Assembly (NCBI GenBank): GCA_019055375.1 | Contig: JAHQIW010005605.1 | Span: 1-64,000, forward strand | Direction: 5' to 3' | Length of the DNA stretch: 64,000 nt | From: Parelaphostrongylus tenuis | Lineage: Eukaryota; Nematoda; Chromadorea; Rhabditida; Metastrongylidae | Translations under genes and position numbers: made by a program | In this document: in pieces, positions 1,721-64,000 of the stretch | How positions within the stretch are numbered: position 1 is the first letter of the stretch | How the letters are laid out: every line of letters begins with the position of its first letter | Notes under the pieces: model-generated | What the model saw: only the letters and a program-made list of their open reading frames with translations | Told to the model about the DNA's origin: nothing | Database searches by the model: none

Positions 1721-3902
1721 AAAGTTTCGCACATTACTCTATAAGACTTTCCACTGATGTTGTCAAAATCAATTAACTTTCTCTCTGTTTTTCAATGCTT
1801 AACGTTATTAGGACGTATCATCAGTAAAGCGAAGATGGCTCAATCGTCGACCGTCAATTTCCACTCCTATATCGTCCCATTCTAATGTTCGTATGACATT
1901 TTGGAAGGGCAGCAGTGAATAATTTTGGCGAAATTGTATCGCCTTGTCAAGTCACTCCTCCAGCGTCAGTGGTTATAGAATGAAGATACTTTGGTCATGA
2001 AATCTTTATATAGTTCACAAAGAATCATTATGCACCGAGTGGAGACTCCCTGATTATCAGAGTCTCTATAACCGCTTCTGTTCTCACTAAATCAAAGGCT
2101 TTTTTAAAATTGATGAAAATGAGAAGAGCGGCAGTTTGTGCTATCTGGAAACTTCAGTAAGTCCTATGATCGTAGATGTTGTCTGTGGTACAAAATCTTT
2201 TCGGAGCCCTGTTTGTTCTGGTGGCTGTCCTTCATCCAGTAAACTGTCAATCCTGTTTGGGATGACTCGAGTGCAGAGTTCATAGACAGCGGACATTAAG
2301 CTGAATGGGCGATAATTGGCGATGTTATGAAGGTTTTCCAATGATCGGAGACCTTGTACTCTGACATATACTGGGTGGAGAGCCGAGCGTGGGTGTTGAT
2401 GAGAACTGGCATTACGTTCTCAGATGTTCTGATCTAATTCTGTCTGGACCGGGTGTTGTTCTATTCTTCAAAGACGATATAGCATGTCGGATTTCGGAAG
2501 AGAGGACCGGTGGACCGACAGATTCATCCTCTTTTAATTTACATGTCCGTAAGAGGACATGGCCGATTGAAAAAATACGAATAGTAACCGTGGGCAGTTA
2601 CCTCCATTGCCCCTCCGGAGGCTGTGAGTGTCCCTTCAGGACGCGGAGCGCAATCATCTTGGTCCTGTAATGGGCGAAGCTTCGCTAGGCATAGCGAATG
2701 CCTTTCCCATCTTTTGCAGCTTTTGCCATAACTGCTTCTTGTCTCTCTCTGACATCTTCTTCTACCACTTCCCTGCAGCATTTAGAAAACTCGGATGTGA
2801 GATTCCGGTTGCCTGTAACCTTTACAATTCCACGCAGCTTGACTGTTTGCGGAAAAAAGCGTCTTTTCGTGATTTTAGGACTCTTGACTTTCATAACGCT
2901 AACGGTGAGTTATTCTACGAACCAGCTGTACTATACATCGATGTTCTCTACAACGGTATCTTTCCATCAATCGACTAGTGATTATAATACATCTTAGTTT
3001 ATGGTAGTTCCGATACTTCCGTTGTTTGAGTTTAGCACTTGCGCTCCATTCTGCAAAAAACGGAGCGTTGCTCGAAAGAAGCGATGGTCTAATCCCATGT
3101 ATAGTTCGAGAGCAACAGCGGCATCGATCAGGCAAAACTTTCGATTCATTGCTATGTGGTCTGTTTCATTATAATACCCTTGTATATGAGACTCCCACGT
3201 TTACCATGTTAGAGTGGGGCTTTTGAAATTGTTAGTTACCATGGACGATTTGGGTCGACACGATAACAGATAGACTCCTCACACTGTTCATTCCATTCTA
3301 GTCCGTAGGTCCCAATGTGACGCTCTTTAGACGTTTTTCCAGGTTCAATTTTCGCCTCAAAATCTGCAGCAATGACCTTGAAGAATGTGTGATCTTCTCT
3401 GAAGAATTTGTCGAAGTCCATATAGAACGCTTCGACTCCGTCTTCGTCATTACTTGATGTTGATGCTTAGGCAACGAAGATGTTCAGAGCCGGCAATTAA
3501 TCACACCGCTTTAATCGTAATAGTCCGATGCGAGTTGTTGGTTGTTCAAGAATCGATGTTCACGGCCAAATTCGACTTGACCATGACGCCAACAACGCCG
3601 CACCTCTGCTATCGCATGTTCAAAGAAGCAGTTTTTCTCCTTTGCTCACAAACAGCGTGAAAGGATAGCATCTTGTCGTCTCACTAATCCCAATGACGTT
3701 GTACCGTATCCTTGATTCTTGAATCAATAGATCTTCTACAGCGGATTCGTGAGAGAGTGTTCGTGCATTATCGTTACACGTCGTCATTGTAGCCTGTTTC
3801 GATTTTGGTAGCCTAGCTTGGCTCCAAGATTTTTGCAGCCTCTGTACTAGTCCTACACGACGCTACCGTATCGGGGGTTCTTTCTGGCTTAGGGGAATGA
3901 CC

Positions 3903-26929: not shown

Positions 26930-27110
26930 TTAACGCTTCTAGAGGTGGTGTGACGTTATAGTATACCCAATGGTGTGGAGTGATGTGCAAAGCATCTGCT
27001 TCAAGTGGGACTTGAAATCGCATCTCATCAGTTCGGAGATGCGTGTTACATCCCTTACTCCACCTACGCCTGCTTTGACACCACTCCTTCCACGCAACAA
27101 CACATTTGGG
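26930..27110 (-). repeat. Remnant of tRNA-like foldback family C
   Basis: ACGCTTCTAGAGGTGGTGTG starts the typical end. ACGTTATAGTATACCCAATG and GTGATGTGCAAAGC follow, then an antisense type A module (AAGTGGGACTTGAAATCGC is a degenerate B box). Only one arm is recognisable. Confidence 0.6.
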
Positions 27111-35605: not shown

Positions 35606-38600
35606 CAAGTGTATCACCAGTCATCCTGTTGATTGTCGAGTGATTCGAGCGGGTACCAGCAATACTTTCACTCTTCCCTATCGCATGCAAGAGTATCCCA
35701 GTGGGTCCTCCTTACTCTAGAAACTCTCTGAAAATCATATCTATCTTCTATAGCTTTCGTGAATAAATCGGACAAATCGTTCGGTGGTCTTCCTGTAGAG
35801 CGCTGATGTCCCGAAGTAAACAGTGGGTAACGGTTCCCGTCAATCGGTTGCCGCTGAAGCGCATCACGTGTTCAGTCAACCTTATTTTCGATATCCTAAC
35901 GTGTAGAACGGCGTCTCTGATTTTCCATCGTAGACATAGGTTAGAACTTCGGATCCTTGCTCTCATTTGTGAGATACGGGATATTCCTAGCATCGACCTT
36001 TTGACTGCGCGCTCGTTAACGCCAGATGATCTTTCATCCTGCTTACGTAGCGACCAGGCTTCTGTTGCATTTGTTGGGCCAGATATAATCGTCTAGTCGA
36101 AAAGGTGGGCACGGAGTCGGATGTTCTTTGTCCTGTTCACTACATCTTCGATGCTCTTAAGCGTTCCCCAAGCCGCTCGTTTCCTCCTGCTCAACTCTGG
36201 GGCTAGGTCGTTCATCATGTTGATTTCACGACCTTGATAAGCGTAGCTGGAACATTCGGAGATTGTCGTTCCATTGGGCGTGAATGAGACATTCAAAATC
36301 CATCCGTTCCTCATGAACATCGTTTTCGCTAGATTTAGTGGAAGACCAACATTTTCACAGGCGTTATCGAAATCAGTTAACGTTCGTTCCGCTTGGCTGA
36401 TGTTTGGTGTTATGAGGACGATATCGTCAGCAAATTGGAGATGGTTGAATTGTCGACCGTCAATTTTCACTCCCATATCGTCCCATTCTAATATTCGCAT
36501 GGTATTTTGTAGAGTGGCAGTGAACAGTTCTGGCGAAATTATATCGCCTTGCCTAACCCTTGTTCTTACGTCAACTGTAATATTGTTGAGGAATAGAGAT
36601 ATTTCGGTCGTGAAATCTTCATATAGCTCACGAAGGATCACTATGTATCGAGTAGGGACGCCCTGGTTATCCAGGGCCGCTATAACCGTTTCTGTTTCCG
36701 CTGAATCAGGCTTTGCTCTCATCGATGAAAGTGGGACACAGTGGTTGCTTCCACTTTCGTGAAACTTCAATGGGTCTTGTAATAGTGTGGATGTGGTCGA
36801 AGGTACTAAATCATCTTCGGAGCCCTGCTTGTTCGCATAGCTGTCCTTTGTCCAGTGTTCTGTCAATCCTGTTTAGAATGACTCGAGTAAAGAGTTTATA
36901 GACATTGGACAGCAATCATATTTGGCGATAATTGCCTATGTTGTGAAGGTCCCTTTTTTGGACAACAATGCGCTCTTGATGGCTTTCCATTGACTGGGGA
37001 TCTTGCATTCCGACAGGTAGCGAGTGAAGAGCCGAGCCAGGGTGATTGATGAGAACTAGTGGCATGTTCTTCAGGTGTTCTGGTCTAATCCTGTCTGCAC
37101 CGGGTGTTATTCTGTTCTTCACCGACGATATGGTATCTCGGATTTAGGAAAGGAAGACCATTGGAGCAACATATTCATCCTCTTCCAATTTCTGTAACGG
37201 TAAGATGACATGGCTAGCGAAGAGATCCGAGTAGTATTGGTGGATGATTTGCCCAATGCCGCTTGTTTAAGCTGTGAGTATCCTTTCAGGGCATCGGAGT
37301 GCAGTCATCTTGGTCTTATAACTGGGGAAGCCTCGCTGAAAATAGCAAATGCTCTTTTCAGCTTTTACCATAATTGCTGTTAGTCTCTCTTTAAGATCTT
37401 CTTTTATCTCTAATCTGCAGCGTTTGGCCAGTTCGGACGCAAGATTTTGGTAGCCTGTTACTCGTGTTATTCCACGTTGGCGCATCAGCTCGAGTGTCTG
37501 CGGAGGCAAGCGTCTCTTCGTGTCCTTAGGGCTCTCGGCTTTTATAGCGCTAACATGGAGATGTTCAACGAGCCGATCGTATTCTTCGTTGAAGTTGCCG
37601 ACAACAGTATCTTCCCAAGAGCCGACTAATGATTTGAACACATCCCAGTTTATGGTAGTTCTGGGACTTCGTTATTTGAATTAAAAGGCCTTCTCTCGTC
37701 ACTTCGAAAAACGGAACATTGAGCGGAGGAGGCAATGGTCTGATCCGAAGTAGAACTTAGAAACAACAGCGACATCGGTCAGACAAAGCCTTTGATTTAG
37801 TAAGATGTGCTCTATTTGCTTATGGTACTCTCTATTGGAAGACTCCCACTTCCATCGCCGAGAGTGAGGCTCTTGGAATTGTGAGTCACTATGGATGGTT
37901 TGTGTCGTCATAGTCAACTCAGATAGCCTCTCACCCTGTTTATCTCATTTTAGTCCGTGGTTCCCAATGTGACGTTTTTCAGGCTTTCTTCTTAGTCCGA
38001 TTATTGCATTAAAATTTCCGACAATGACCTTGAAAAATGTATGATCTTCTCTGGAGAACCTTTCGTGATCCACATAGAACGCTTCGACTTCGTCTTCGTC
38101 ATAGCTTAATGTTGGTGTGTAAGCAACGAAGATGGTCAAAGCCGGCATAGAATCACATCGTTTCCATTGTAATTGTCCGATACGGGTTCTTAGTTGTTCA
38201 AGCGAACAGATGTCCAGAGTCAAATTCGATTTGACGAGGACGCCAACGCCGCCGACAGCTCTGCTATCGCATGTTTCAAGGAATTGCTCGTCACCGGTGT
38301 CATAAACAGCGTGAAAAGGATAGTGTCTTCCTCAGCCAGGCCAATAACGTTGTACCTTATGCTTCTTCTTTGCGTCAGTAGATCTTCCACAAAGAATTCG
38401 TGAGCATGAGTTCTTGCACTGCAGGTATACATTGTCATTTTAGTCCATCTCGATTTTGGCAGCCTAGTTTGGCTCTGAGATTTCAGCAGCCTCTCCGTAC
38501 TCGTCCTATCTGGCGCTGCCGTACCAGGGCCTCTTTCAGGGTCAGGGGAGTAAGGCCCATTTTCCTTGCTGTTTTTGGCATTTTGATACCCAATGTATAG

Positions 38601-38939
38601 CTTGCCAGGCTCCAAACGTGAGGGCTGGGTGCTCACAATAGCTCACCAGTCTCTCTCGGAGGAGCGGGTGGAGCTTCTTTGTAGGAGGCGACTCCTAACC
38701 GCCTCCCATGTACTTCCCAGCCGTTTGATTGCAGGCTTTGGCCGACTTGACTTGTAGAAAGAGCGTTTTGTCAAGTCGGCGCTGCACAAGCAGGGACCTC
38801 ATCACCCGAATCGGCCTGCATCTCTGGGAAGCACACGGTTCTTTTTGGTTCGCGTTTATTCCCCTATCCACCACCTGGGGCGTGCCACATGCCCTCGCGA
38901 CTAACCGGGCGAGATTTCTTAACGAGGGAGGTTCGTGGA
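35601..38939 (-). mobile_element. RTE retrotransposon copy 3, full length but broken
   Basis: Minus-strand RTE with its 3' tail at 35601 and its 5' end near 38936. It shares several variants with copy 2 that the intact copy lacks, for example GCGCTCGTTAACGCC for GCGTTCGATAACGGC and ACCAGGCTTCTG for ACCAGGTTTCTG. That supports a common origin by duplication of the two. Confidence 0.92.
35640..38636 (-). pseudogene. RTE endonuclease-reverse transcriptase, pseudogene (copy 3)
   Basis: Broken polyprotein. Minus 38636-38220 holds the N-terminus with IGLAEEDTILF, where the catalytic glutamate of the endonuclease is expected in IGLAE. 38223-37945 is the endonuclease core, 37641-37267 the linker, 37122-36916 the RT start, and 36866-36093 (257 codons) the palm and thumb. 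The palm has GVPTRYIVILRELYEDF, VRQGDIISPELF and FADDIVLITPNISQAER. Motif A (FIDLKKAFD) is destroyed by a deletion near 36720, so this copy is inactive. Confidence 0.9.
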
Positions 38940-47840: not shown

Positions 47841-48671
47841 ATCCGGTTAATAAACTTGGTGTTTATTGCTTTAGTGATAATACTCATGAGGAAACTTAAT
47901 GCTTTCTTAGTAAATAATTTAACTGAATAAATTTCCACTTTTCCATTGCACATGTGTCAGTGTAAATTGTCCTCCGCTGTACGGCGCACGGTACTGCGAC
48001 AATGGCGCGCTCGACGAGCCGTCGTATGGGGAAATATTTCATAGATTGTGGTTCTGAAGAAACAATATCGTGATTAGGTAATCAAAAATTACAGATTAGA
48101 CTTCTACTTAAGTTTTCATGTTATATGATCTCAAAAGGCGTCTATACGTCAGGCATTATCACCGAAAAAAGATCATTTTCTCTGAGATTCATGCAGGCAG
48201 TGCTAAGAAGTTGGATGCTGTGAAGTTATCAAGAACATATCTGAGTGTTTGCAAAGATGCTGAGTATACCCGCTACTAAAATAGGTTAGCAAAAATAAAA
48301 TGAGATACGTTGCACCTTAAGAATTGGCGACCGCCTCTTAGAGCCGCCGCTCTTCTCATGAATGATTTCTGTGGATCGAGGATCGAGTTAATATTTTGCC
48401 TAACACACGACGCTGTCGCCGGTTGGCGGGAGCGCGCAAAAAACACTATGGTAGTGGAATAAGCTCACCATTGAAGGAAAATTGATTGTGAGTAAATGAA
48501 AAAGTATGATTGAATAGACCTCAATGAGGCCAGGGTTAGCGGGAAAACGTGAAAACGTCGCTATAAAACCCTAACATATATCTTAAAAAGAAATCAACGT
48601 TTAAAGACTTGAGCCTTTCCCCAATCTATGCATTAGACTGATATATAATCAGATAGAAATCTTTTTTTATT
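47841..48671. other. Unassigned stretch
   Basis: No supported gene. A GC-richer patch with inverted-looking GTACGGCGCACGGTAC lies near 47983. Confidence 0.4.
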
Positions 48672-49015
48672 TAGCTCTTTGTAGCGGCGGTATGATGTTA
48701 TAAATATACCCATTCACCTAGAATAATGTGCAAAACTTTCGCGCCAGGTGGAACTCGAACCCGTAACTCGCTCACTTCGGCAATGCGTGCTCTAACGCGT
48801 TACACTACTGAGTTCGTTTTGACCACCACTCTTTCTACGCCGCATCTATCTGTCACCAACCAACCGATATGAGTTTAAGCCCAAGTGTTCGTTACAGAAA
48901 GGTGCAACGTGCTAGACCACGAACTCGCGGATAGGGTGAGATGCGTGTTTGAGTCTCGCCTGACGCAAAAGCTTTGCACTTCACTCTACATCATGACTAA
49001 TGTGATTTCCAACAC
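48672..49015. mobile_element. tRNA-like foldback family C, small copy
   Basis: The left end CTCTTTGTAGCGGCGGTATG leads to GTGCAAAACTTTCGCGCC and an antisense type A module with a near-canonical B box (GGTGGAACTCGAACCCG as complement). An inner stretch follows, then a sense module (CGGATAGGGTGAGATGCG, TTTGAGTCTCGCCTGACGC) and AAAGCTTTGCACTTCACTC, the complement of the left end. Confidence 0.75.
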
Positions 49016-49970: not shown

Positions 49971-50830
49971 GGTGCTATGAGTTATTATCGCTACTTGTCC
50001 ACTAGGAGGCTTTAAATGAAAAACCGATCTCATTCAATGGACAGAAACTATTCATGAAAGAATTAGTAACCATTCCATAGCTTAAATTTTTGGCTAGAGC
50101 CCCACGAGGCCGTTTTTCGAAAAAGCCTTTTCTGACGTTAATAGAGAAGGAAATTCATTCCGTTTCAAACGTGCATATTTCTTGCCGAACAAAGCTTTTT
50201 CTTTGGACTATTAGCAGCCATTCAAAGGCGTAATGGTTAATGATTCCAGCACTGTGTTTTTTTTAGAAAGACCGTTTTCATCAACGCAAAAAGGAAAATA
50301 AGTTGAACTCACATACGCGAGCAAAGGGGTCTTTGGCCAATTCACTTGCCGTTGGTTAAGGCGGCACAGACGGTGACGCGACGATCATCGATTTTCAGGC
50401 ATATGAACGTCTAGAGAAATCGCGTCAGCAGTTCACGTGGCCACCTCACCCACCGGCACGTGAACTATCCAAAGACCCGTTTGCCCGATGTGAGTTCAAC
50501 TTACTTCATCTGTTGCATTGTCGAGAAGCGGTCTTTCCTGAAAATAAGCACAGTGTTGTTGTCAGCAAACATTACGCTATCGAACGATTACTAATAGTCA
50601 AAAGAAAGAGCTCTGTCCAGCGAGAAATGCCCACGTCTGTAAAGCATTGAATTTTTTTCGCGAGAACGTAAAAAAAATTTTTCGAAAACCGGTCACGTGA
50701 AGCCCTAACCAAAAATCTAAGCTTTCGAAGGATCAATATCACTAATATGAAAAGTTGCGGTCCAGCAAATGATTTGCACGTTTTCTTCGTCGGTTTCTCA
50801 TTTGTCGCTTCATAATGGACAAGTAACGAA
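49971..50830. mobile_element. Palindromic element, family P, copy P4
   Basis: The left arm has CTACTTGTCCACTAGGAGGC, AAACCGATCTCATTCAATGG and TAGAGCCCCACGAGGCCG. The right arm, inverted, has CGAAAACCGGTCACGTGAAG, AAAAATCTAAGCTTTCGAAG and TTGTCGCTTCATAATGGACAA. Arms are near 350-400 bp. The middle holds TTAGTAATCATTCGATAGCG-type blocks in both orientations. No enzyme encoded. Confidence 0.85.
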
Positions 50831-51669: not shown

Positions 51670-52484
51670 GCAGCACAGATGAAGATACGATCGCTTTCGC
51701 TAGACAAGAAGTTTCCATAAAAGTGTTGGTAAACGCTCGAAAGCTGCGCTTTCTGGCTACAGCCTCACGTGGCCGGTTTTTCAGAACACTCTTTTATAAC
51801 GCAGTAAAATTCAAAAGAAAACTAGCCTCATACGCGCATATTTCTCGCCAGAGACACCTCTTTTTATAGACTAGTATTAATCATTGTAGCGCTATGTTAG
51901 CTCATTCCAACGCTGTGCGCTGTGCTTTGTTTTTTGGAAAGATTGTTTTTCCTCAATGCAACACGGAAAATAACTTGAACATATACACGAGCAAAAGGGC
52001 CTTTGGACAGTTCACGAGGCAATAGCTAAGGCGCCACATGAAGTGACGCTATGATCATCGATTTTCGAGGTAAATAAACGCGTGGAGAATTGTTGACGTA
52101 AGCAGTTCACGTAGCCGACTCATCCACCGGTGCGTGAATTAGCCAAAGACTTCCTTGGTCACACATGCAAATACAATTTATTTTGCCAGCTCCGTTGCAA
52201 AGAAACCGTCTTTTTAGGATATAAGCAAAGCGTTGATATTAGATAACACTACGTTATCGAATGATTACTAATAATTTAAAAAAGCAGCCCTGTCGGACGA
52301 GAGATATGCGCGTCTAAAAACTATTTTGCTTTGAATTTTACAACGTTATAAAAGAGTATTTTCGAGAACTGGCTAAGTGGGGCTTTAGCTCAAATCTAAA
52401 CTTCCGAACAATAGATAACATCAGCATGAAGAGTTCCTGCTTAGCGAATGAGATCGATTTTTCATTTGTCGCCTCATAATGGAC
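51670..52484. mobile_element. Palindromic element, family P, copy P5
   Basis: The left arm has ACGATCGCTTTCGCTAGACA, CCTCACGTGGCCGGTTTTTC and CACTCTTTTATAACGCAGT. The right arm has ACAACGTTATAAAAGAGTAT, AACTGGCTAAGTGGGGCTTT and ends TGTCGCCTCATAAT. The 80-codon plus frame at 51627-51869 lies across the left arm and is incidental. Confidence 0.85.
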
Positions 52485-53350
52485 GAGTATTGAAATCATT
52501 GTAAACTAGTAATGTTCGAGACAATTCATGCTAAGCTAGTCTTCTCAATACCAATAACTCTAGCATAACTTGCACGATCACTAGAAAACTCCTACCTGTG
52601 TGAAAAAGTGGAGAATTCCGTCGGTTCAGACATAAATCGGAAACCGCGTCCTCTGACATAACCTACTGAAACAGCAAAACCATTGAGTACCAAGAGCAAC
52701 TAATGGATGCTTTTACAAAAACTTCTATGGCCAACAGAAGCCGATGTAGCGAAGGCAGAAAATTATTAGAACACGTCCATATTCTATCTTTATCGTTGCA
52801 ATATTCAGTAAAAAAAAATAAACGGGTATCTTAAATGAAGTATTTGAGGAAACTAATTCCAGGAAATCATAAAAGAAACCGAAAATCGAAAAACGAGCAT
52901 CTGAAGATACGGATGAGAATCTCTCCGTTTGAACGGTCATACCTCAAAGACACTTTACTGGAAGGTTCCAGCGCCTTAGCGTCGGGGTTTACTAAGCGGC
53001 GTTTTCCATATGGCTAATGACCCTAGGCGAGGATACTCCTTGGACTCTTTAAAAATGAGAAAGATATCAGGTGTAAAATGATGTGATCGGATGATCGGAT
53101 AACTACGGATTTTCTGAACCTATTAATTCGTAAAAACACACTGTGATTTCTCGTTAACAACACCACTCACTGTTTCAATCCCTCCAAACTACCATCAGTA
53201 CTGAACTCCCTCGAACGAAGACTGGCTGATTGTCGTTCGTGTTCGCGTAGATATGCCTTTTCTTCCGTTCATACTGGGATCTTTTCCTGTGGTTCAACCT
53301 CAAAGTATTCATATTAAGTGTTTAACAGAAGAAGAAAAGGCAGCAAAGCT
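52485..53350. other. Spacer between palindromic elements
   Basis: No gene I can support. Short frames at 52725-52940 and 52835-53017 overlap and have no recognisable product. Confidence 0.4.
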
Positions 53351-53432
53351 GTGGCCTCGCTGGTCTCGTGGTAGCACGGGCCCCAGGTGTGGGTGAAACG
53401 CGGAGTTTAACCCCCGCGTGAAGTCGGATGCT
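53351..53432 (+). repeat. tRNA-like module, type B (sense)
   Basis: GGCCTCGCTGGTCTCGTGGTA then GCACGGGCCCCAGGTGTGGG and GCGGAGTTTAACCCCCGCG. It follows the type B modules at 55351 and 61531. The A box is recognisable, and the B box has lost its GTTC core. Confidence 0.55.
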
Positions 53433-53499
53433 TTCTTTTACTGTTCAGTGCTCTTAGATGTTGAATAGAATGGTTAGTTAGAGGATACTATTCGGTTAT

Positions 53500-54303
53500 A
53501 AGGAGACTAAAGAAAAACTGATCTTAATTGCTGACGAGCAATTTTCATATGTGTGTTGGTAACTAATCGAAAGCTGAGACTTGAGGCTACAGCCCCACCT
53601 CGCCGATTTTCCAGAAGCCTTTTATTGAGGCTGCCACAGAAGGAGATTTCCTGCGTTGCAGGCGTGCATACCTCTTGCAGGACAAATCGCTTTCTTTGGT
53701 CTATTAGTAACCATTCGCCGGCATTATCGCTGGTGATTTCAACGCTGTGCTTATTTTGTAGAAAAACCGTTTCTCTGCAACGCGGCAGGTAAAATAAGTC
53801 GAATCCCAATCTGCAATCAAGGGCCCCTTTGGCCAATTCACAAAAGTCTGCGTGAGGCGGCTACATCAACTGGTCGCGCAATACTTCTCTAGCGTTTTTT
53901 ACACAAAAAATCGATGGTCATCGCTTCGTCCAACTCAGCTGCCCCAGCCAGCCGCACGTGAGTTTGACAAGGACGCCACCGTCCGCGGATGGGAATACAA
54001 CTTGTTTTCCCTGCTTCGTTTCAGAGAAACCGTCTTCTCAGGATATAAGCATAGCGTGTAAAAACGATACCGCTATCGAATGATTGCTAATAGCCTAAAG
54101 AAAGAGCTCTGTCTGGAGAGAAATACGCGTGTCCGAAGTCAAGAAATTTCTTCCTGCAGCAACGTCAAACAAAGTCTTTTTCAAAAATCGACGACATGGG
54201 GCTGTAGCTTCACGTCTCTGCTTCCGAATGTTTTCTAATGCTCCCGTGAAAAGTTCCTCTTCAACGACTGAGATCGGTCTTTTAATTGTTCCCTCATAAT
54301 CAG
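53500..54303. mobile_element. Palindromic element, family P, copy P6
   Basis: The left arm has GAAAAACTGATCTTAATTGC, TACAGCCCCACCTCGCCG and TTTATTGAGGCTGCC. The right arm has CGACATGGGGCTGTAGCTTC, TGAAAAGTTCCTCTTC and ends TCCCTCATAAT. Frames at 53507-53836 and 53553-53792 are on opposite strands of the same palindromic arm and are incidental. Confidence 0.85.
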
Positions 54304-54329
54304 AATGAACCGAAAATTCTTACCTGCTG

Positions 54330-54830
54330 GTTTTATTCTTACATTTTCATAGGACTCGTCCGCCAGCAGAGCTAATGCGGCGCTACCATGTAATTGCAAA
54401 AAAGCGTCGGTGGCGGAAGGTAGCCGAGTGGGAGGATCAAACATATTTTCCGGCTGATGGCGTGCAACATCACTAATCACTCGCTATCTGCATTCACCAG
54501 TTCTTAGCCATATATGTCAGTCAAGCCAACTTTGAAGTGGTTTCTTATGAGATTTCAAAATCAGCATTTACAAAGAAGACTGGTCGATAAACGCTACCAA
54601 AAATAGACGATGACGACAGAGAAGAACAGCTTAGACAATCGATGTGGAATTCAACAAACACAGCTCTCCGTACGGAAAAGAAAGGAGGCTAATAGGAAAC
54701 GCAGAATGTTCGGTGAATCAATACGAACCGTGTAAGACTTCATTCGCGGTCAGCCTCTCCCAATGGAATCAGACGGGTGAACGGGGGAGGGTCACCTGAA
54801 TGAGTTCCTTAAGTTCTCCAGTTGTGAATG
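54330..54830. repeat. Dispersed repeat E, copy 1
   Basis: Matches 59060-59575: GCTAATGCGGCGCTACCATG, AAAAGCGTCGGTGGCGGA, TTTCTTATGAGATTTCAAAA, TTGGTGAATC-type blocks, GGTCAGCCTCTCCC and GAGTTCCTTAAGTTCTCCAG. The tRNA-like segment near 54410-54480 is more decayed than in the second copy. No coding content. Confidence 0.7.
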
Positions 54831-54867
54831 TACCCAATCATGTACAGTGATGCGCAAAACAAAACCG

Positions 54868-54939
54868 TTAGGCGGGAACCGAACCCGCATTTCACTCTAT
54901 CCGGGGTCGCGCGCTCTAACGCGTTGCACTACCGGCACC
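54868..54939 (-). repeat. tRNA-like module, type A (antisense)
   Basis: The minus strand reads GGTGCCGGTAGTGCAACGCG, GGATAGAGTGAAATGCGG and GTTCGGTTCCCGCC. The B box is close to the pol III consensus GGTTCGANTCC. No anticodon arm of normal shape. Confidence 0.65.
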
Positions 54940-55125
54940 TGTTTTGCCACCATTCTTTCCAAACCAACCGCTTCACTCTGTCAGCAGTCAACCGTCAACA
55001 GCTTGGCCCACGAAGGCGCCACCAACACTGAACCCAGTCACGCCGACCAACTGGTATTGGTATTGGTTGACCATATACAATTCTTCATATACACTAACGA
55101 GAACTGAGTGGTGAGCAAAAACTCG

Positions 55126-55197
55126 ACGTCAGGCAAGGGTCGAACCCACGTTTCACCCACAATGAGGGCGCGTGCTATCATCACACCACCGGGGCGC
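55126..55197 (-). repeat. tRNA-like module, type B (antisense)
   Basis: The minus strand reads GCCCCGGTGGTGTGATGATA, GCACGCGCCCTCATTGTGGG and GTGGGTTCGACCCTTGCC. The A- and B-box positions match the sense module at 55351. It resembles a glycine-type tRNA in the first half. Confidence 0.65.
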
Positions 55198-55350
55198 TGC
55201 TCTACCCTCACTTATTCTTCAGTATACCTCTTTCATAGCATCAGCTACCAACATATAACTGGCTTGGTCGGGCAAATAAAATCGCTATAAACGTAAAAAT
55301 TGAGTGGTGAGCAAATATGAGGGACTGAAGAATAAGTGGTGGTGAAACGG

Positions 55351-55422
55351 TGCCTCTGTGGTGTAGTGGTAGCACGCGCCATCGGTATGGGTGAAACGCG
55401 GGTTCAATTCGAGCTAGAGGTT
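55351..55422 (+). repeat. tRNA-like module, type B (sense)
   Basis: GCCTCTGTGGTGTAGTGGTA followed by GCACGCGCC, ATGGGTGAAACGCGGGTTCA and ATTCGAGCTAGAGGT. The seven bases GCCTCTG and the final TAGAGGT can pair fully (two G-T), like an acceptor stem. The A box TGGTGTAGTGG is canonical. The T-stem is damaged on its 3' side. Confidence 0.7.
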
Positions 55423-55606
55423 GGATTTTTGCTCACTACACAATTTTCTTGGGTGTATCAAAAAGAATTCTCTTTCATCGCCCAAAACCCAATATTTGTC
55501 AGCGTGACTGGGCTCAGTGTCGATATCGACTGACTGGGCCAAACCGCCGGCGGCTGGCTCTTGAAAGACTGATACGTTGTAGAGTCGAAACAGTGGTGAC
55601 AAAACA

Positions 55607-55680
55607 GGCGTCGACCATTCAACGGGTAAGACGACGCGCCCCGCGATAGGGTGGAATGCGGGTTCAAGTCCCGAAGGTGT
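55607..55680 (+). repeat. tRNA-like module, type A (sense)
   Basis: GGCGTCGACCATTCAACGGG, TAAGACGACGCGCC, and a B box GCGGGTTCAAGTCCCG that is intact with its stem. AAAGCTTTGCACATCG follows, the same 3' adjunct seen after type A modules elsewhere. Confidence 0.65.
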
Positions 55681-57282
55681 TAAAGCTTTGCACATCGTTT
55701 TGCATGATTGGGCATATTCATTACATCTTCCCATCGCTAAAAGCGGTTATATAAAAAAGAATTCTCTCTGATACTCTATTGCTGTACTTTGCTTTCCATC
55801 TGACTGACAAGCCATCAAGCATAGACGGCGTCACGGAAGGCAGTTAGATTTGCTTCGATGGTCCGCCTAAAATTTACCAGAGAGGCCTCCTCGCAAGCAT
55901 AACAGAGCAACCAGTAGAAAACGAAGAGAGTTCGCCTCATCAGTAATCCCAAACAAAACCCTCTTTTCTTTCTTTTTTTCTCTTCTTTTTAGTCGAATAA
56001 TAGAGTGGCGACTCATCAGATTTTGCTGACAGTAACCTCATGCTTGCTGAGTAGAAATTACTGGAATTACTGCCGACTGATTTTCGGAAGTGGTGCATTT
56101 GAGTTGTTGGATTGCTGAGCTTAACTCTTCGCAGGCGTCGTGCATTTCACAGAATGCACGCCCACTTGCATTTTTCGCTGAGCAGAGATTTTCTTTGAAT
56201 TTTTGCTAGTTAGTAGGTAACATTAGAGACGACGATTTTATTCTGTTTGTTTTCAGAAGAGATCATCTCAGTTCACTGTAGCAGTAGAAAAAAAATTATA
56301 TTACACCTTTAGCGACCATTTCTTGCTTGACTGGTCGCCTGTGCTTGGCCTGTTATTAGACTTTTACTGCTCATTCAATAGCATAAATCTTGATGATTTG
56401 GAAACAAGGCTAGGTTTATGGAAAAGTTATATCCCATATTTACAACTGGAGAACTCGAGCTGTTCATTCAGGTGACCCCCGGTCATCCGCCACTCACTCC
56501 AATGAGAGAGCCTGACACCGACTGGAGGCTTTTCTATTCGCCCTGCGAGCGCTTTTCGGCCGGTTGGTTGGTCTCTATGTGGAGGCACCGTTATCGGAAG
56601 GAACACTCTCTGAGTCGATTATTATATAAGAGAAATTGCATTGATAACAAATCGACTGATAAACCTGGGACTTGTTCGTCTTCTTATTGGGTTTGCAAAG
56701 GTGATAAGGGTTACCTGAGGGGAGGGGAGTTTCAGTAGTTCAGATGAACCGCCTAAGCACTGACGGAAGCGAATTTCGCGCCGAAATAAACTTTGTCAGA
56801 AATGAAACCGGTCTTTTTCTGTTATCGGGAAGGGTTATTTGAAGGGACGTTTTCTGTTGTACAAGATCTTTCTACTGGACTTCTAGTAGTTATTCTAAAG
56901 TTTAAATCTCGAAGATTTTAAAAGTATACTTGTTTTATAAAAAAGCCTTCTTACAACGCTGCAGCACTAAAAATAAAATTTCGTTCTACATTCGGTGCAT
57001 TTCCACGTAAATTTGTGCTATCTAACTGGAAATCTTTTCTCCCTGTCGTAGAAATTTTTGCCGTTTTGTATTGTAAATGCAGAACAAACCTTGCTCTATT
57101 GTTCTGTAAGTTTCGGCTTGAACGTCGAGGAGCGTCTAAATATCGACTTTCCCACAAGGTTTTATTAAAACCATCCTGAGAGCGTCATTGGGGACGAAAG
57201 CTCTTCAGGTACTTAATCTTAATAAGAATTTAGGAAGCAGGATTATTCCATATCATTCTAAGACTTGAATACCTCTAACCGC

Positions 57283-57915
57283 TTTTAGCGGCAGTATGAT
57301 GGTACTATTATGTCGTTCCCCAAGTTTAGACACTACCACATTAAGCACATAATTCATGCAGCAGAAACAGTTAAACTGCCCGACTCTGACGATCAATTGC
57401 GCATTCCTTTGCGAACATTTCTGTACACAAATTGCCTAAACTTGCTTTATAATCGAGCTGTGCTGGGAACAAATTCGCTTGCTACTCATGCACGAATGGC
57501 GCCTTGAGGTAAATGCTAATGAAGATGCGCGTAAGATGAATGGAGCTAAAGGCGATGATGCGGTTGCAGAAAGGACAACTGAAAGTGATTCGCGAAGTCC
57601 AAAGCTAAAGAGTACAATTTGGAGAATCAATCGGACTCTACCGTCCATAGAAAGCTCCCTAAATCCAGTGTGCCGCTTCACTAGCATTTACCTCTACGTG
57701 CCATTCTTGAATGAGAAGCAAGCGAATTTGTTCCCACGGCAGCTTCATTTTTAAGCAGGTACGGAAAATTTTATATCAAATTATTCGCGACAAAATGCGC
57801 AACTAAACAATACCAAAACAGTTAAGTATGCTTCATAATTTAATGTTTAATGCTCTAGTGCCAAAACTCATGAAACGACCTAATAGCAACATCACACCAC
57901 CTCTAAAAGCGATTA
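57283..57915. repeat. Central part of the giant palindrome with family C-type ends
   Basis: Begins CTCTAACCGCTTTTAGCGGC and ends with the complement of CTCTAATCGCTTTTAGAGGT, the terminus also used by the tRNA-like foldback elements. It contains no tRNA-like module. Inside, GGGAACAAATTCGCTTGCTA near 57468 is mirrored by AGCAAGCGAATTTGTTCCCA near 57718, so the mirror symmetry runs almost to the centre. The overlapping frames at 57479-57754 (plus) and 57687-57436 (minus) lie across it and are not supported. Confidence 0.7.
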
Positions 57916-59059
57916 GAGATAAAATTATGGCCTTAAAAAGATATCGAAGAATCCCTCTTTCCAAATTTCTACTGAAGTTAAGTACCTAAAGAGTTTACTT
58001 TCACAATGACGCTCTCAAGATGGGTCCTCATGAAGCCTTGTCGGAGAGTTGATGTTTAGACGTTCTTCGCCGTTCAAGCCTAAGCTCATAGAACGACAGA
58101 GCAAAACTTGTTCTGCAATCACTGTGCAGAAAATTCCAAAAATCTCAACAAAAGAGAGACAAGGTTCTGCAAATAGATAACACAATCCGCGTGAAAACTA
58201 ACTGAGTGTGAAAGGGAATTTTATTTTTGGAGTCGCAGCGGGGTAAGAACACTTTTCCAGAAAACATGCATACTCTACCATTTTCCCAGATTTGAGCTCC
58301 CAAATAATTACTAATAGCATAGTAAAAGAAAGTTCCCATAGAGCAAAAAATGACCCTCGAAAAAATCCTCACCAATAACAAAAAAGAACCGGTTTCACTT
58401 ACAACAAAGTTAGTTTTGACGCGGATTTCGCTTCCTTCAAGCGTAGACGGATCAAGTTGACTATTTGAACCCACCGAGGTAACCCATGCCACCACTTTAA
58501 ACCAATAAGAAGACGAACAAGTCCCAAATTCATCAGTTGAGTTGTGAAAAATGCAATTTCCTTTGCATACTCATTGCTTTCGACAGGGTTCCTTCAGATA
58601 ACGATGCTTTTACGTAGAGATCCATCACCAGCGAAAGAGCGCTCTCGAAACGAATGAACAGGGTGGGTATCGCTCTCTCTCTCTCTCACAGGCAATTATA
58701 CCATTCGGATATATGGTGTGAGGGCATATAAGTCACAGTGTTAGAGGTTTTCTGCGACACACATATGTGGTCGATGGCTCTATCCTGCAGCCATGGCTCA
58801 TCAATTCTTCCATCCCTTCGGGTTCGGTGGATTGATTGCAGACTTCTCCGGAAGGACAGCAGCACTGATCAAATACTTCGGCAGGCCACCACAAATCACG
58901 GCTGAGGTCAAACATGGATTCGATCACATCAAACCATGCTAGATGTGGAAAAATGCTTGATGCATCTTTCTAAGACATTGATCAGCTTCAAAAGTTTTGC
59001 CTATTTATTATTTCATTGTGTGAGCCCACTCGTGATCACCGATAACTCCTCCATACTGG

Positions 59060-59575
59060 CCCTGTCTTCACATTTCCATATGCTTCGTCAGTCAACCGAG
59101 CTAATGCGGCGTTTCAACGTGACTACAAAAGAGCGTCGGGCGACGGAGGGCGGCACGGCGCGGAGGAGAAGAGGAATCGAACCACACTTTCCTCTTGGAG
59201 GCCTCCAACATCATTAACCAATCGGCTATTTGCTCGCACCACTTGTTGCCGATATACGTAAATCGGTTCAACTATAATTCAATTTTTTATGAGATTCCAG
59301 AATGACAAACAGACAGAATCGGCATTTGCGAAGAAGACTGAATGATGAAAGCCACTACGAATAGACGACGACAAGGTCAGAGAAGAAGAATTTTGATAGT
59401 CAAGATGGTACGATTAGCGATATGTAAAGAGGGCAACAGTTTGCGCGAAGAGTTTGTTTGGTGAATTGAACCCTACAAACCTCCATTCAGGGTCAGCCTC
59501 TATCACCAGAGTTAGAGGGAGAAACAGGGCTCATCCGGATGAACTACTCAAGTTCTCCATCCAGTTGTAAACATA
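59060..59575. repeat. Dispersed repeat E, copy 2, inside the right arm
   Basis: Matches 54330-54830. Its last 100 bases also appear inverted in the left arm of the giant palindrome (56418-56540), which shows that repeat E belongs to the arm and that the left arm has lost the rest. Confidence 0.7.
59156..59240 (-). repeat. tRNA-like module, long variable arm type
   Basis: The minus strand reads GGTGCGAGCAAATAGCCGAT, TGGTTAATGATGTTGGAGGC, then TGTGGTTCGATTCCTCTTCT. It has a serine/leucine-style D arm (AGCCGATTGGTTAA) and a canonical B box GGTTCGATTCC. The ends GGTGCGA and TCCGCGCC pair poorly, so I read it as a tRNA-derived module and not a working tRNA. Confidence 0.6.
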
Positions 59576-60018
59576 TAATATGACCTTTCCAAAAACTTAA
59601 TTTACTTTCCAAATCATCAAGATTCTTGCTATCGAATGAGCAGTAAAAGTTTAGTGAAAAGCCAAGCACTGACGGCCCAGTCAAGCAAAGAATGCCAGCC
59701 AAAGATGTAATATAATTTTCTTCTCGCTGCTACAGTGCATTGAGGTCTTTTCAGGAAGCAAACACAGAATGAAATCGCCATTTCGGAAGTTATCGACGGA
59801 CTACCGAAAGTCCGACGAAAATCTCTGTCCAGAGAATAATGCAAGAAGGCGTGCATTCTATGAAATGCACGACGTGTTCGAAGAGTTAAGCTCAACAATC
59901 GAACAACTCAACAGGACGATTTGCGAAAACTTACGGGACAGTGATTTCAGGTCTTTTTCTTGGGCAAGCATGAGGTTGCCAGAAGCAAAATCTGATGAGT
60001 CGTCATCAATTTTCTTGA

Positions 60019-60125
60019 ATAAAAAGAAAACAAAAAGAAGAAGAAGGAAAAAGAAGAGAAAAAGCAGAAAAAAGACAAGAGAAAAGGTGACAAATAGAAA
60101 AAAAAACAGAAGAAAAAGAAGATTA
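60019..60125 (+). repeat. Purine-rich low-complexity tract
   Basis: About 105 bases of almost only A and G. In the 122-codon plus frame at 59769-60137 it gives a Lys/Arg-rich tail. The left arm has a shorter pyrimidine counterpart near 55955-55995. Confidence 0.8.
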
Positions 60126-60620
60126 CAAAGTCTTTGATCGACGCGCGCTTTAATACGACAATATCGATTTCGACGAATCTTCAGACAAATGCAACACTTT
60201 GCACTAATTACAAAACATAAACAACAGCGTAAACAACAGCATCGACATCAAAATAAACAAGAACTGAAAACTCACTCTGGTAATCCATAATTGTCCACCA
60301 CCACCTGTCGTTTGTCAAGCGCCCTCCAATACAACCACGGTTGACGAAATGCTTTGAAGCATCAGTCGTCTCGAACGGAGCGCGTTATACGAGAGAAGCT
60401 CTTAATGATTTTGAAACGACAGATGTCGATTGCTTCTATCACGTGAAAAGCTTCTCCATTGATAGGCGACAGTGTCGAGCATATCTGAATTGAACTCGTG
60501 GCGAATCGCTTCGTGTCCGTCTGAATCACCCATGGTAGAGCAGTATCGAATAATTTGATCTTAGAAGTTAGACGAAATCTAATTAGAGTAGGCCTTCCCA
60601 ATGAAACCTTACTAACCCCA

Positions 60621-60766
60621 TTGACAGAGCCCGAACTCCCTTGACCCCCGTGAAAGAGCTCGAACCCTACGGAACCTCTTGAGAGAGCCTGAGCCTCACT
60701 GACCGTAGTGAGGAAGCCCGAACACCACTTACCTTAGTGATAAAGTCCGAACCATGAATGGGGCTC
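60621..60766 (+). repeat. Minisatellite, five degenerate units of 29-30 bp
   Basis: Units start at 60621, 60651, 60680, 60709 and 60738. Each has a form like TGANAGAGCCCGAACYCC followed by a TTGACC-like block and ending TAG or CCG. It has no counterpart in the left arm of the palindrome. Confidence 0.8.
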
Positions 60767-61037
60767 ATAAGGGGTTATTGATAAAGCGAATTTTCTGCGT
60801 TTCCTAGTGGTTCCTTTCCTCTCTTTGCGAGGAGCTTTGTCTGGCAAATTTCGGAGGAACCATCGAAGTCCTTTCCACCAGTGCTTGCCGCCTTCGTTGG
60901 CGTCATTCATGCTTGATGGGTTGCCAGTCAGATGGATCGCAAAGCACAAGTATGGAGTAGCAAAGAGAATTCTTTTTATTTCATCGCTTTTAGAGATGGG
61001 AACGGTGTTATCAATATAAACAATAATGTGCAAAGCT

Positions 61038-61118
61038 TCTGCATCGGGATGGACTCGAACTCACATCTCACCATATCCGAGTGCGCGCGCTCTCTAATTT
61101 ATTGCACTACCGACGCCT
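61038..61118 (-). repeat. tRNA-like module, type A (antisense)
   Basis: The minus strand reads GGCGTCGGTAGTGCAATAAA, GAGAGCGCGCGCACTCGG and GTGAGTTCGAGTCCATCCC. The B box GAGTTCGAGTCC differs from consensus by one base. Duplicated GCGC has lengthened the middle. Confidence 0.65.
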
Positions 61119-61301
61119 GTTTTGCCACCATTCTTTTCAAACTGTGACGCATCAGTCCACCAGCAACCAACCGTCAACCGCTTGGCCCAGATAATCGATA
61201 TCGACATTGAACCCAGCCACGCTGACAGATATTGTGTATTCGATGATCAAACAGAGGTCTCTTTAATAAACTTGAAAGAATTGAGTGGTGAGTAAAAAAT
61301 T

Positions 61302-61374
61302 GGCCTTGAGACTGAGCTGAACCCATGTCTCACCCACACTAAGGGCGCGTGCTACCATTGCACAATCGAGGCGC
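61302..61374 (-). repeat. tRNA-like module, type B (antisense)
   Basis: The minus strand reads GCGCCTCGATTGTGCAATGG, TAGCACGCGCCCTTAGTGTG and GGTTCAGCTCAGTCTC. Mirror partner of 61531-61604 about a centre near 61453. Confidence 0.6.
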
Positions 61375-61530
61375 CGCTCCATCACCACTTATTCTTCTAT
61401 ATCCCTCTATCATAGCTATCAAACATCAACCTATAACAGGTTTGATAGGGTAAGCCATATTGCAATGCATCTAATAGAACTGAGTGGCGAGGAAATATGA
61501 GAGACACTGAAAAACAGCGGTGGTGAACAA

Positions 61531-61604
61531 AGCGCATCGATGGTGTAGTGGTAGCGTGCGCCCCAGTATGGGTGACACGTGGGTTCAAGTCCCGGCTAAG
61601 GTCG
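61531..61604 (+). repeat. tRNA-like module, type B (sense)
   Basis: GCGCATCGATGGTGTAGTGG, TAGCGTGCGCCCCAGTATGG, then GTGGGTTCAAGTCCCGGC. The A box is canonical, and the B box with the TTCAAGT loop is well kept. It is the best-preserved type B copy. Confidence 0.7.
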
Positions 61605-61647
61605 AATTTTTGCTTACCACTCACTTTTCTCGGGTTTATTGGAAGCA

Positions 61648-64000
61648 TCATCACCTGTATCACCTGTCGTCCCGCTGATCGTCGAGTGACTCGAGCGGGT
61701 ACCAGCAACTCTTCCATTTTTCCCTATCGCGTGCAAGAGTATCCCAGTGGGTCCTCCTTGCTCTAGGAATTCGCTGAGCATCATATCTTTCTTCCATCGC
61801 TTTCGTGAAGAAATCGGACCAACGGGTCAGTGGTCTTCCTTTAGAGCGCTTGACGTCCCGAGGAATCCAGTCGGTAACGGCTCTCGTCCATCGGTTGTCG
61901 TTGAAGCGCATCACGTGTCCGGCCCACCTTATTTTCGATATCCTGGCGTGTAGAACGGCGTCTCTGATTTTCGATCGTTGACGTAGGTCGGAAGATCGGA
62001 TCCTTTGTCTCATTTGCGAAATACGAGACACTCCTAGCATCGACCTTTCGACTGCGCGTTCGATAACGGCAAGTGATCTTTCATCCTGCTTACGTAGCGA
62101 CCAGGTTTCTGCTGCATACGTTAGGGCAGGGATAATTGTCGAGTCGAAAAGGTGGGCACGGAGTCGGATGTTCTTTGTCCTCTTCACTACATCTTCGATG
62201 CTCTTAAACGTTCCCCAAGCCGCTCGTTTCCTCCTGCTCAACCCTGGGGCTAGGTCGTTCATCATGTTGATTTCACGACCTAGATAGATGTAACTGGAGC
62301 ATTCGGAAATTGTCGTTCCGTTGAGCGTGAATGGGGCATTAGAAACCCATCCGTTCCTCATGAACATTGTTTTCGTTAGATTCAGTTGAAGACCGATCTT
62401 TCCACAGGCGTTATCGAAATCAGTCAACATTCGTTCCGCTTGGCTGATGTTTGGTGTTATGAGAACGATATCGTCAGCAAAGCGAAGATGGTTTAATTGT
62501 CGACCGTCAATTTTCACTCCCATTTCGTCCCATTCTAATGTTCGCATGACGTTTTGTAGGGTGGCAGTGAATAGTTTTGGCGATATTGTATCGCCTTGTC
62601 GAACCCCTCTTCTTACGTCAATTGTGATATTGTTGTAAAATGGAAATATTTTGGTCGTGAAATCTTTATAAAGCTCACGAAGGATCATTATGTACCGAGT
62701 AGGGACGCCCTGGTTATCCAGAGCCTCTATAACCGCTTCTGTTTCCACTGAATCAAAGGCTTTTTTCAGATCGATGAAAGTGAGACAGAGTGGTTGTTTG
62801 TACTCTCGCGAAACTCCAATGAGTCTTGTGATCGTGTGGATGTGGTCCATGGTACTAAATCCTTTTCTGAACCCTGCTTGTTCGCATGGCTGTCCTTCGT
62901 CCAGTGTTCTGTCAATCCTGTTCAGGATGACTCGAGTAAAGGGTTTATAGACAACGGACAGCAAGCAGATTGGGCGATAATTGCCTATGTCGTGAAGGTC
63001 TATCTTTTTGAACAGCAATACGGTCTTGCTGGTTTTCCATTGAATAGGGACCTTGCATTCTGACAGGTAGCGAGTGAAGAGCCGAGCCAGGGTGTTGATG
63101 AGAACTGGCGGCAGGTTCTTCAGGTGTTCTGGTCTAATCCTGTCTGGACCGGGTGTTGTTCTGTTTTTCACCGACGATATAGCATGTCGGATTTCGGAAG
63201 GAAGGACCGGTGGAACAACATATTCGTCCTCTTTCAATTTATATGACGGTAAGAGAACATGGCTAGCGAAGAGATCCGAGTAGTACTGGTGGATGATTTT
63301 CTCCATAGCCCTTCTCGATGCTGTAAGTGCCCCGTCAGGGTATCGGAGTGCAATCATCTTGGTCTTATAGTTGGCGAAGCCTCGCTGGGCTTTGCGAATG
63401 CTCTTCCCAGCTTCTGCAGCTTCTGCCATAACTGCTGCTCTTCTCTCTTTAAGGTCTTCTTTTATCGCTTCTCTGCATCGTTTCGCAAGTTCGGACGTAA
63501 GGTTTCGGTTGCCTGCGGCTCGTGCGATTCCACGTTGACGTATCAGCTCGAGTGTCTGCGGAGACAAGCGTCTCTTCGTGACCTTAGGACTTTCGGCTTT
63601 TTTAGCGCCAGCGTGAAGATATTCAACGAGTCGATCGTATTCTTCGTCGATGTTGTCGACAACGGTATCTTCCCAAGAGCCGACTAATGATTTGAGTACA
63701 TCCCAGTTTATGGTAGTTCTGGGACTTCGTTGTTTGAATTTAGCGGCTTTCTCTCCTCTCCTCGAAAATCGGAACGTTGCGCGAAGGAGGCGATGGTCTG
63801 ATCCCGTGTAGAACTTGGGAACAACAGCGACGTCGGTCAGGCAAAACCTTCGATTTACTATGATGTGATCTATTTCGTTATGGTACTCTCCATTGGGAGA
63901 CTCCCACGTCCATCGCTGAGAGAGAGGCTTTTGGAATTGCGAGTTACCATGGATGGTTTGGGTCGTCATGATAAACTCGGATAGCCTCTCACCCTGTTCA
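61648..64000 (-). mobile_element. RTE retrotransposon copy 5, intact where visible
   Basis: The 3' tail CAGGTGATACAGGTGATGATG on the minus strand starts at about 61668 and ends near 61648, directly against the foldback element. The element continues off the right edge, so the endonuclease N-terminus and leader are outside the window. Unlike the other copies it has no stop or frameshift in 2.3 kb. Confidence 0.95.
61660..64000 (-). CDS. RTE endonuclease-reverse transcriptase (partial, open at window edge)
   Basis: The frame stays open from its stop at 61660 to the window edge. The codons before the internal methionine at 63969 read EQGERLSEFI, so the true start lies outside. From the N-side it has the end of the apurinic-endonuclease domain (RWTWESPNGEYHNEIDHI, then GSDHRLLRA with the catalytic SDH) and a basic linker. 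The reverse transcriptase follows with NYRPICLLS, FIDLKKAFDSV (first catalytic Asp), GVRQGDTISP and FADDIVLI (catalytic Asp pair), then the RTE-type C-terminal region with KIRWAGHVMRFNDNRW. Such proteins nick chromosomal DNA and copy the element RNA at the nick. About 780 codons are visible; the N-terminal couple of hundred are missing. It is the only copy here that could be active. Confidence 0.95.
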   Translation of the reverse strand, partial: EQGERLSEFIMTTQTIHGNSQFQKPLSQRWTWESPNGEYHNEIDHIIVNRRFCLTDVAVVPKFYTGSDHRLLRATFRFSRRGEKAAKFKQRSPRTTINWDVLKSLVGSWEDTVVDNIDEEYDRLVEYLHAGAKKAESPKVTKRRLSPQTLELIRQRGIARAAGNRNLTSELAKRCREAIKEDLKERRAAVMAEAAEAGKSIRKAQRGFANYKTKMIALRYPDGALTASRRAMEKIIHQYYSDLFASHVLLPSYKLKEDEYVVPPVLPSEIRHAISSVKNRTTPGPDRIRPEHLKNLPPVLINTLARLFTRYLSECKVPIQWKTSKTVLLFKKIDLHDIGNYRPICLLSVVYKPFTRVILNRIDRTLDEGQPCEQAGFRKGFSTMDHIHTITRLIGVSREYKQPLCLTFIDLKKAFDSVETEAVIEALDNQGVPTRYIMILRELYKDFTTKIFPFYNNITIDVRRGVRQGDTISPKLFTATLQNVMRTLEWDEMGVKIDGRQLNHLRFADDIVLITPNISQAERMLTDFDNACGKIGLQLNLTKTMFMRNGWVSNAPFTLNGTTISECSSYIYLGREINMMNDLAPGLSRRKRAAWGTFKSIEDVVKRTKNIRLRAHLFDSTIIPALTYAAETWSLRKQDERSLAVIERAVERSMLGVSRISQMRQRIRSSDLRQRSKIRDAVLHARISKIRWAGHVMRFNDNRWTRAVTDWIPRDVKRSKGRPLTRWSDFFTKAMEERYDAQRIPRARRTHWDTLARDREKWKSCWYPLESLDDQRDDR

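What the first reader, a model, noticed from the sequence alone, without database searches (positions are those of the whole stretch)
55736..60994. A 5.3-kb imperfect palindrome of unknown family
Five pairs of inverted blocks in strict mirror order converge on a centre near 57605, with symmetry running almost to the centre. No recognised enzyme or known foldback family is visible. The right arm keeps about 1.5 kb the left arm lacks, so the asymmetry records later deletions or insertions. If transcribed it would form very long double-stranded RNA, a natural trigger for nematode small-RNA silencing.
Basis: partly seen in the sequence, partly recalled or inferred. Interest (0 to 1): 0.8.

Follow-up and report, generated by a model that had tools for sequence, protein, structure and literature searches.

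The report
Mirror-image array between palindromic repeats
The palindrome is real, but it looks like one stretch of an old local duplication in a worm genome, copied alternately forwards and backwards with its turning points at small hairpin-shaped repeats, rather than a new mobile element.

Summary
The palindrome is real: arms 76.6% identical over 2,109 aligned columns, in strict mirror order, against 0 of 100 shuffles. Mirror axes lie on palindromic repeats that also occur elsewhere: C (57308-57883), a 576-bp TA-flanked mariner-type MITE with a decayed Mos1/SETMAR-like HTH, and T, about 900 bp with tRNA-like segments. Near-full-length arm module W was scored only on C3710, C1364 and C1363; elsewhere only short pieces of the arms match. 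C3710 stays colinear with C1363 well past the array. This favours local inverted amplification plus segmental duplication over a transposon. The best mechanism is template switching at palindromic repeats, as in ODIRA. Four arms are about equally divergent (68-72%), suggesting an old burst. The 1.5-kb asymmetry is left-arm deletion. No coding signal was found. A hairpin could still form (z = -21), but transcription is untested. Whether C seeded the mirror or landed in it is open: the window's C does not group with the C at the neighbouring node.

The parts
54337..54829 (-).
   Evidence: direct match to 59065-59387 and inverted match to 56438-56531
54825..55720 (.). left T node: self-palindrome (67%), axis 55272.5; two tRNA-like segments per arm, read by eye from the alignment
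   Evidence: one segment passes Rfam
55352..55422 (+). tRNA-like segment in T
   Evidence: Rfam tRNA 31 bits, gathering 29
55754..55950 (+). U module, left arm
55964..56531 (+). V module, left arm (75% to 59477-60051)
56533..57305 (+). W module, left arm; positions 271-580 of the query 56540-57270 hold a dispersed repeat
57263..57305 (+). T-type end motif directly abutting C, left side
57308..57883 (.). C node: 576-bp palindromic mariner-type MITE with TA at both ends; axis of the big palindrome
57452..57607 (+). decayed Mos1/SETMAR-like helix-turn-helix codons
   Evidence: HTH_48 E=2e-4, 21.9 bits, below the 24.1 cut-off; SETMAR chain 7s03_A E=0.17
57886..58660 (-). W module, right arm; its inner edge (about 57886-57928) is the mirrored T-type end motif
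58660..59476 (-). Y and X modules, right arm; mostly lost from the left arm
59477..60051 (-). V module, right arm; about 59582-59869 is a dispersed repeat
60052..60770 (-). E module, lost from the left arm, kept in part in L021 and L024
60771..60990 (-). U module, right arm
60991..61651 (.). right T node, axis 61452.5, interrupted by a LINE insertion
61652..64000 (-). LINE insertion (label RTE recalled) splitting the right T node; runs to contig 65016; 11-bp TSD GGAAGCATCAT

Best explanation
An old, local, alternating inverted amplification of about 4 kb of mostly low-copy DNA. Shown: the array order is X(inverted) |T| U V W |C| W' Y' X' V' E' U' |T| U E V X Y W |C| W' Y', and its axes fall on repeats that are themselves palindromes. 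Shown: the copies on C1364 and C1363 are colinear with the second half of the array, and C1363 well past it. Inferred: when the repeats were young they were near-perfect interrupted inverted repeats, and a fork or broken end switched template within them and copied the neighbouring DNA backwards, as in the ODIRA or fold-back models. A seed at each end of the unit gives a forward-backward-forward array. Later steps: deletion of E and most of Y/X from the window's left arm, a LINE insertion into the right T node, segmental duplication to C1364/C1363, and drift to about 70-76% identity. It most likely has no present function.
For: Mirrored flanks begin 3 and 0 bp from the probe-defined ends of C and run 763 bp at 70.9%. 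The right T node mirrors U about its own axis, allowing for the LINE insertion. Near-full-length W was scored only on C3710, C1364 and C1363 (11 of 40 scored matches; the other 29 are short pieces). In the X-V-E-U search 18 of 46 matches lie on those contigs; the other 28 are pieces under 250 bp. C3710:66680-77000 is colinear with C1363:4401-14784 at 80-85%, and C3710:65343-72304 with C1364:4324-11299 at 80-84%. W arms of window-left, window-right, L021-left and L021-right are 68-72% alike, close to a star. End branches of the 12 C half-arms from the window and dispersed copies are 0.12-0.35, those of the window W arms 0.18-0.20. Mismatches are nearly even by codon phase, and 4 of 70 gaps are multiples of 3. 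PMC10766183 (abstract, passages and junction section read): yeast inverted junctions lie at pre-existing interrupted inverted repeats. The best arm pairs inside the nodes are 100-158 bp apart.
Against: In L021 and L024 the mirrored end motif on the right is not next to a C end: the node is 929-995 bp in L021, L024 and L025, with other sequence in between, so the mirror meets both ends of C only in the window copy. The window's C is only 63% like the C at those nodes and does not group with it; its left half joins a dispersed copy, L026 (92/95), which speaks for conversion or a separate insertion. Mirrored flanks are not general for C: 8 of 9 copies with both ends found have none (two of the 8 are duplicates of each other); L031, seen apart, has a 143-bp mirrored flank. 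Mirror hits at any distance are common in these loci (59 of 300 random anchors), so only abutting mirrors inform. Yeast junctions used repeats of 2-14 bp with 40-80 bp spacing preferred, smaller than here. No origin or recent event was examined. T copy number genome-wide did not complete.
Confidence: 0.55

Rival explanations
1. The inverted duplication arose some other way (breakage-fusion, or switching at a T-type palindrome whose ends still flank C), and MITE C later landed at its centre.
For: T-type end motifs flank C on both sides in the window and occur on both sides of the node in L021 and L024, so the centre may once have been a T palindrome. The window's C does not group with the C at the L021/L024/L025 nodes. 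In L031 a C copy also sits between mirrored flanks, as if inserted at a palindrome centre.
Against: It needs C to land at the exact mirror point, with nothing of the old centre left in the window copy, and at the same place in the motif in the window, L021, L024 and L025.
Confidence: 0.28
2. A large foldback transposon of about 8 kb (T...C...T) that moved as a unit.
For: Long inverted arms, palindromic termini, several copies.
Against: Few copies; C1363 shares flanks with C3710 far beyond the array; the arms are mosaics of low-copy DNA and small dispersed repeats; no target-site duplication around the whole was identified.
Confidence: 0.1
3. A functional hairpin RNA locus feeding small-RNA silencing.
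For: The centre folds far better than shuffles (z = -21.1). T carries tRNA-like segments, one above the Rfam threshold at this locus.
Against: The arms have drifted to 76.6% with one perfect run of 21 bp or more; no transcription data were available.
Confidence: 0.05
4. Assembly artefact.
For: The contig itself is a giant inverted repeat that may be a false fold.
Against: A false fold gives near-identical arms; these are 70-76% identical, and divergent copies stand on separate contigs.
Confidence: 0.02

Closest known systems
ODIRA inverted triplication (yeast SUL1; PMC10766183, abstract, passages and junction section read)
   Same: forward-inverted-forward copies with junctions on pre-existing interrupted inverted repeats
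   Different: unit about 4 kb; seeds are transposon-like palindromes hundreds of bp long; old and fixed in an assembly; no origin shown
Fold-back inverted duplications in humans (PMC3907307, title and start of abstract seen in a listing)
   Same: large inverted duplication formed by fold-back
   Different: more than one axis and a small unit here
Mariner-type MITEs with TA target sites (class recalled; Tc4/Tc6-type foldback elements of C. elegans and Hsmar1-like termini also recalled)
   Same: C: TA flank, inverted termini, HTH_48 remnant, dispersed
   Different: applies to the 576-bp node C only, not to the 5-8 kb palindrome
tRNA-derived SINEs (class recalled)
   Same: T carries tRNA-like segments and is dispersed
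   Different: arranged as a palindrome with two such segments per arm; no parent LINE identified

Membership tests
Foldback/large TIR transposon (whole palindrome) | copies at unrelated sites with independent flanks | tested here: not met
   among scored candidates, long arm matches lie only on C3710, C1364, C1363; C1363 shares long flanks with C3710. Only the best 40 candidates per search were scored
Foldback/large TIR transposon (whole palindrome) | target-site duplication at the outer ends | not tested
   the ends lie in T nodes that continue into the next unit; no outer boundary was defined
Mariner-type MITE (C only) | inverted termini with TA on both sides | tested here: met
   window copy, TA at 57306-57307 and 57884-57885; dispersed ends look alike but were not counted
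Mariner-type MITE (C only) | dispersed copies with different flanks | tested here: met
   25 of 41 matches listed are to C only; flanks differ
Mariner-type MITE (C only) | transposase relationship | tested here: inconclusive
   HTH_48 below its cut-off on the left side only; the mirrored right-side piece did not match it
Mariner-type MITE (C only) | an autonomous mariner with matching ends in the genome | not tested
   PF01359 search not answered; longer copies in L026 and L027 showed no transposase match in Pfam
ODIRA-type inverted amplification | alternating orientation of one segment | tested here: met
ODIRA-type inverted amplification | junctions at pre-existing interrupted inverted repeats | tested here: inconclusive
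   axes lie on C and T, which also occur alone elsewhere; that they were there before the mirror is inferred
ODIRA-type inverted amplification | replication origin in the unit | not testable with these tools
   no replication data
dsRNA/siRNA hairpin locus | transcription and small RNAs | not testable with these tools
   no RNA data; folding only

The most novel reading that the evidence does not exclude
Freshly inserted palindromic transposons, here a mariner MITE and a tRNA-bearing palindrome, act in the nematode germline as seeds for inverted amplification: each copy is a potential mirror point, and one such burst made this array at about the time the MITE family itself was spreading.
Probability: 0.28. 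Interest if true: 0.6.

Novelty: new member of a known kind. Interest (0 to 1): 0.36.

Why it matters
If the axes sit on palindromic repeats because those repeats caused the mirroring, the many small palindromes of this genome are mutagens that reshape neighbouring unique DNA, and other mirror arrays should be findable at them. It also shows how a striking palindrome can arise without being a mobile element or an RNA gene.

Tried and rejected
Protein content: six frames of about 53300-61702 against Pfam, with X at stops, gave one hit, HTH_48 at E=0.052. Four ORFs of the array gave nothing near a cut-off; a 140-aa ORF had no homologue at E<=0.001; the HTH region found none at E<=10. Rfam snoRNA-like matches (22.5 and 18.4 bits, gathering 41 and 50) were dropped as chance, and the tRNA-like match at 61302-61372 is below gathering (22.1 against 29). 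Other C copies with mirrored flanks were sought: 1 of 9, the window itself. The nodes in L021, L024 and L025 were not paired by that script, and L031 was missed by it and seen apart. Papers: five listings on foldback or palindromic repeats and MITEs and one on nematode tRNA-derived SINEs showed, by titles and abstract starts, no account of this structure; that is not proof that none exists.
Full report
Setting. The window is the first 64 kb of contig C3710 (279,948 bp) of a 481.5-Mb genome in 5,105 contigs. The reverse transcriptase at 36093-36869 (Pfam RVT_1) has its best matches in Parelaphostrongylus tenuis (80-83% identity), then Ancylostoma, Necator, Angiostrongylus and Haemonchus, so this is a strongylid nematode. 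P. tenuis or a close relative is likely: its published assembly is 491 Mb, though in 7,285 scaffolds (PMC10940269, part 1 of 3 read). No call names the species.

Observation. The mirror blocks are there, in order, and far beyond chance. Arms are 76.1% (W and the inner part of C), 78.9% (V) and 75.5% (U-T) identical over aligned columns, 76.6% overall; BLAST, counting gaps, gives 70-75%. The symmetry extends outwards to 55327 and 61397, inside two further palindromes, 54825-55720 and 61026-61640. The right arm's extra 1.55 kb is two blocks, 58644-59477 and 60051-60771. Sequence from both blocks occurs in left-arm orientation in L021 (next door on the same contig) and L024 (C1364), about 165 bp of the second block, so the window's left arm lost them.

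Nodes. The centre is a 576-bp element, C (57308-57883), flanked by TA on both sides. Ends like its own recur at dispersed copies with different flanks. 25 of the 41 matches listed are to C alone. C contains a decayed helix-turn-helix of the Mos1/SETMAR type (HTH_48, E=2e-4, 21.9 bits against a 24.1 cut-off; SETMAR chain 7s03_A, E=0.17); the mirrored right-side piece did not match HTH_48. It is thus most simply a mariner-derived MITE. The outer palindromes, T, carry tRNA-like segments: Rfam tRNA at 55352-55422 (31 bits), in L021 at 1256-1330 (29.8) and L031 at 437-513 (43.5). A related copy near 1.3 kb was called tRNA-Ser by ARAGORN. A T-type end motif also lies directly against C on both sides in the window.

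Array. A LINE (61652-65016, 11-bp target duplication GGAAGCATCAT) interrupts the right T node. Beyond it the array resumes: T, U, E, V, X, Y, W, C, W', Y', then V and another C, V being in the left-arm orientation (L021). On the left, an inverted piece of X lies beyond the left T node (54337-54829). L041 (72001-77000) holds only weak matches to the array, so it ends near 71 kb. The mirror axes at about 55272, 57595 and 61453 are the axes of the T, C and T palindromes; a fourth, near contig 68.3 kb, also holds C.

Copy number. Near-full-length W was scored only on C3710, C1364 and C1363 (11 of 40 matches); the other 29 are short pieces of a dispersed repeat in mid-W. In the X-V-E-U search 18 of 46 matches lie on those three contigs; the other 28 are under 250 bp, 25 of them from mid-V and one of 178 bp from E. 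X was seen on C3710 and C1364, with a short piece on C1363, and U on C3710 and C1364. The searches score only the best candidates, so counts are lower bounds, and the folded contig doubles those on C3710. In 184,212 bases outside the array (16 loci, 11 of them picked because they hold C, plus window 1-53000), X, U, V, X-right and E had 0 places, W 3 partial, Y 8 partial, T 14, C 20 and P 11.

History. In a tree of eight W arms, L021-left groups with L024-left and L025-left, and the right arms likewise (100% support), so these are duplicates of one finished palindrome. Window-left and window-right (joined at 86/88) sit near the base of a star, 67-73% identical to the rest. V behaves much the same. 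C3710:65343-72304 is colinear with C1364 and C3710:66680-77000 with C1363, at 80-85%; C1364 and C1363 match each other at 89-92%. That is segmental duplication, not transposition. C half-arms from the window and dispersed copies form a star with end branches of 0.12-0.35, against 0.18-0.20 for the window W arms, so C was probably a near-perfect palindrome when the array formed; this is inference.

Mechanism. Template switching or fold-back at interrupted inverted repeats is known to make alternating inverted copies. In yeast the inverted junctions fell on pre-existing interrupted inverted repeats of 2-14 bp, longer ones used more often, with 40-80 bp spacing preferred (PMC10766183). Here the best arm pairs within the nodes are 105 bp (C), 100 bp (left T) and 158 bp (right T) apart. 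This fits in kind, but the repeats are much longer than in yeast, and the order of events is not shown. Against C as the seed: in L021, L024 and L025 the node is longer and the right end of C is not next to the mirrored motif; the window's C does not group with the C there; and 8 of 9 C copies tested have no mirrored flanks (L031 is an exception). C may instead have landed at the centre of a T-type palindrome.

Function. No coding signal: mismatches are nearly even across phases (the least even block, U-T, has 0.28/0.21/0.25) and 4 of 70 gaps are multiples of three. The centre folds as a long hairpin (-399.9 kcal/mol, z = -21.1), yet nothing here shows transcription. I therefore read it as an old structural scar. 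Verdict: real, extended, explained in outline as a mirror array; moderate interest.

Noticed in passing
contig C3710, 279,948 bp (window = 1-64000): The contig is itself a giant inverted repeat: 99.99% identical near the window's array, 98.4% at 100 kb, 97.7% at 125 kb (1 kb sampled at each), with no near-identical mirror found within 134-144 kb. Probably an assembly or haplotype fold; it doubles C3710 copies in the genome searches.
   Followed up: partly
window 50030-50772, 51696-52489, 53513-54282: Three copies of another palindromic repeat (P, about 750 bp), also found in other loci.
   Followed up: partly
window 1231-1748, 48648-48994, 26944-27092: Further pieces of T-type repeats. The P. 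tenuis paper lists 9,623 tRNA genes and only 7.17% repeats; T-type repeats may account for many of those tRNA calls (inference).
   Followed up: partly
L031 942-984 (-): Hammerhead ribozyme type I match, 36.2 bits, above gathering.
   Followed up: no
window from 477, 11140, 35601 and 61652: LINE copies (label RTE recalled) beginning at the same end, 79-88% alike.
   Followed up: no
window 34018-35575 / 37349-38938: A second large inverted pair, 72% over 1.6 kb, on either side of the reverse-transcriptase stretch near 36 kb.
   Followed up: no
L031 3385-4251: A dispersed C copy between mirrored flanks (143 bp) of another sequence.
   Followed up: partly
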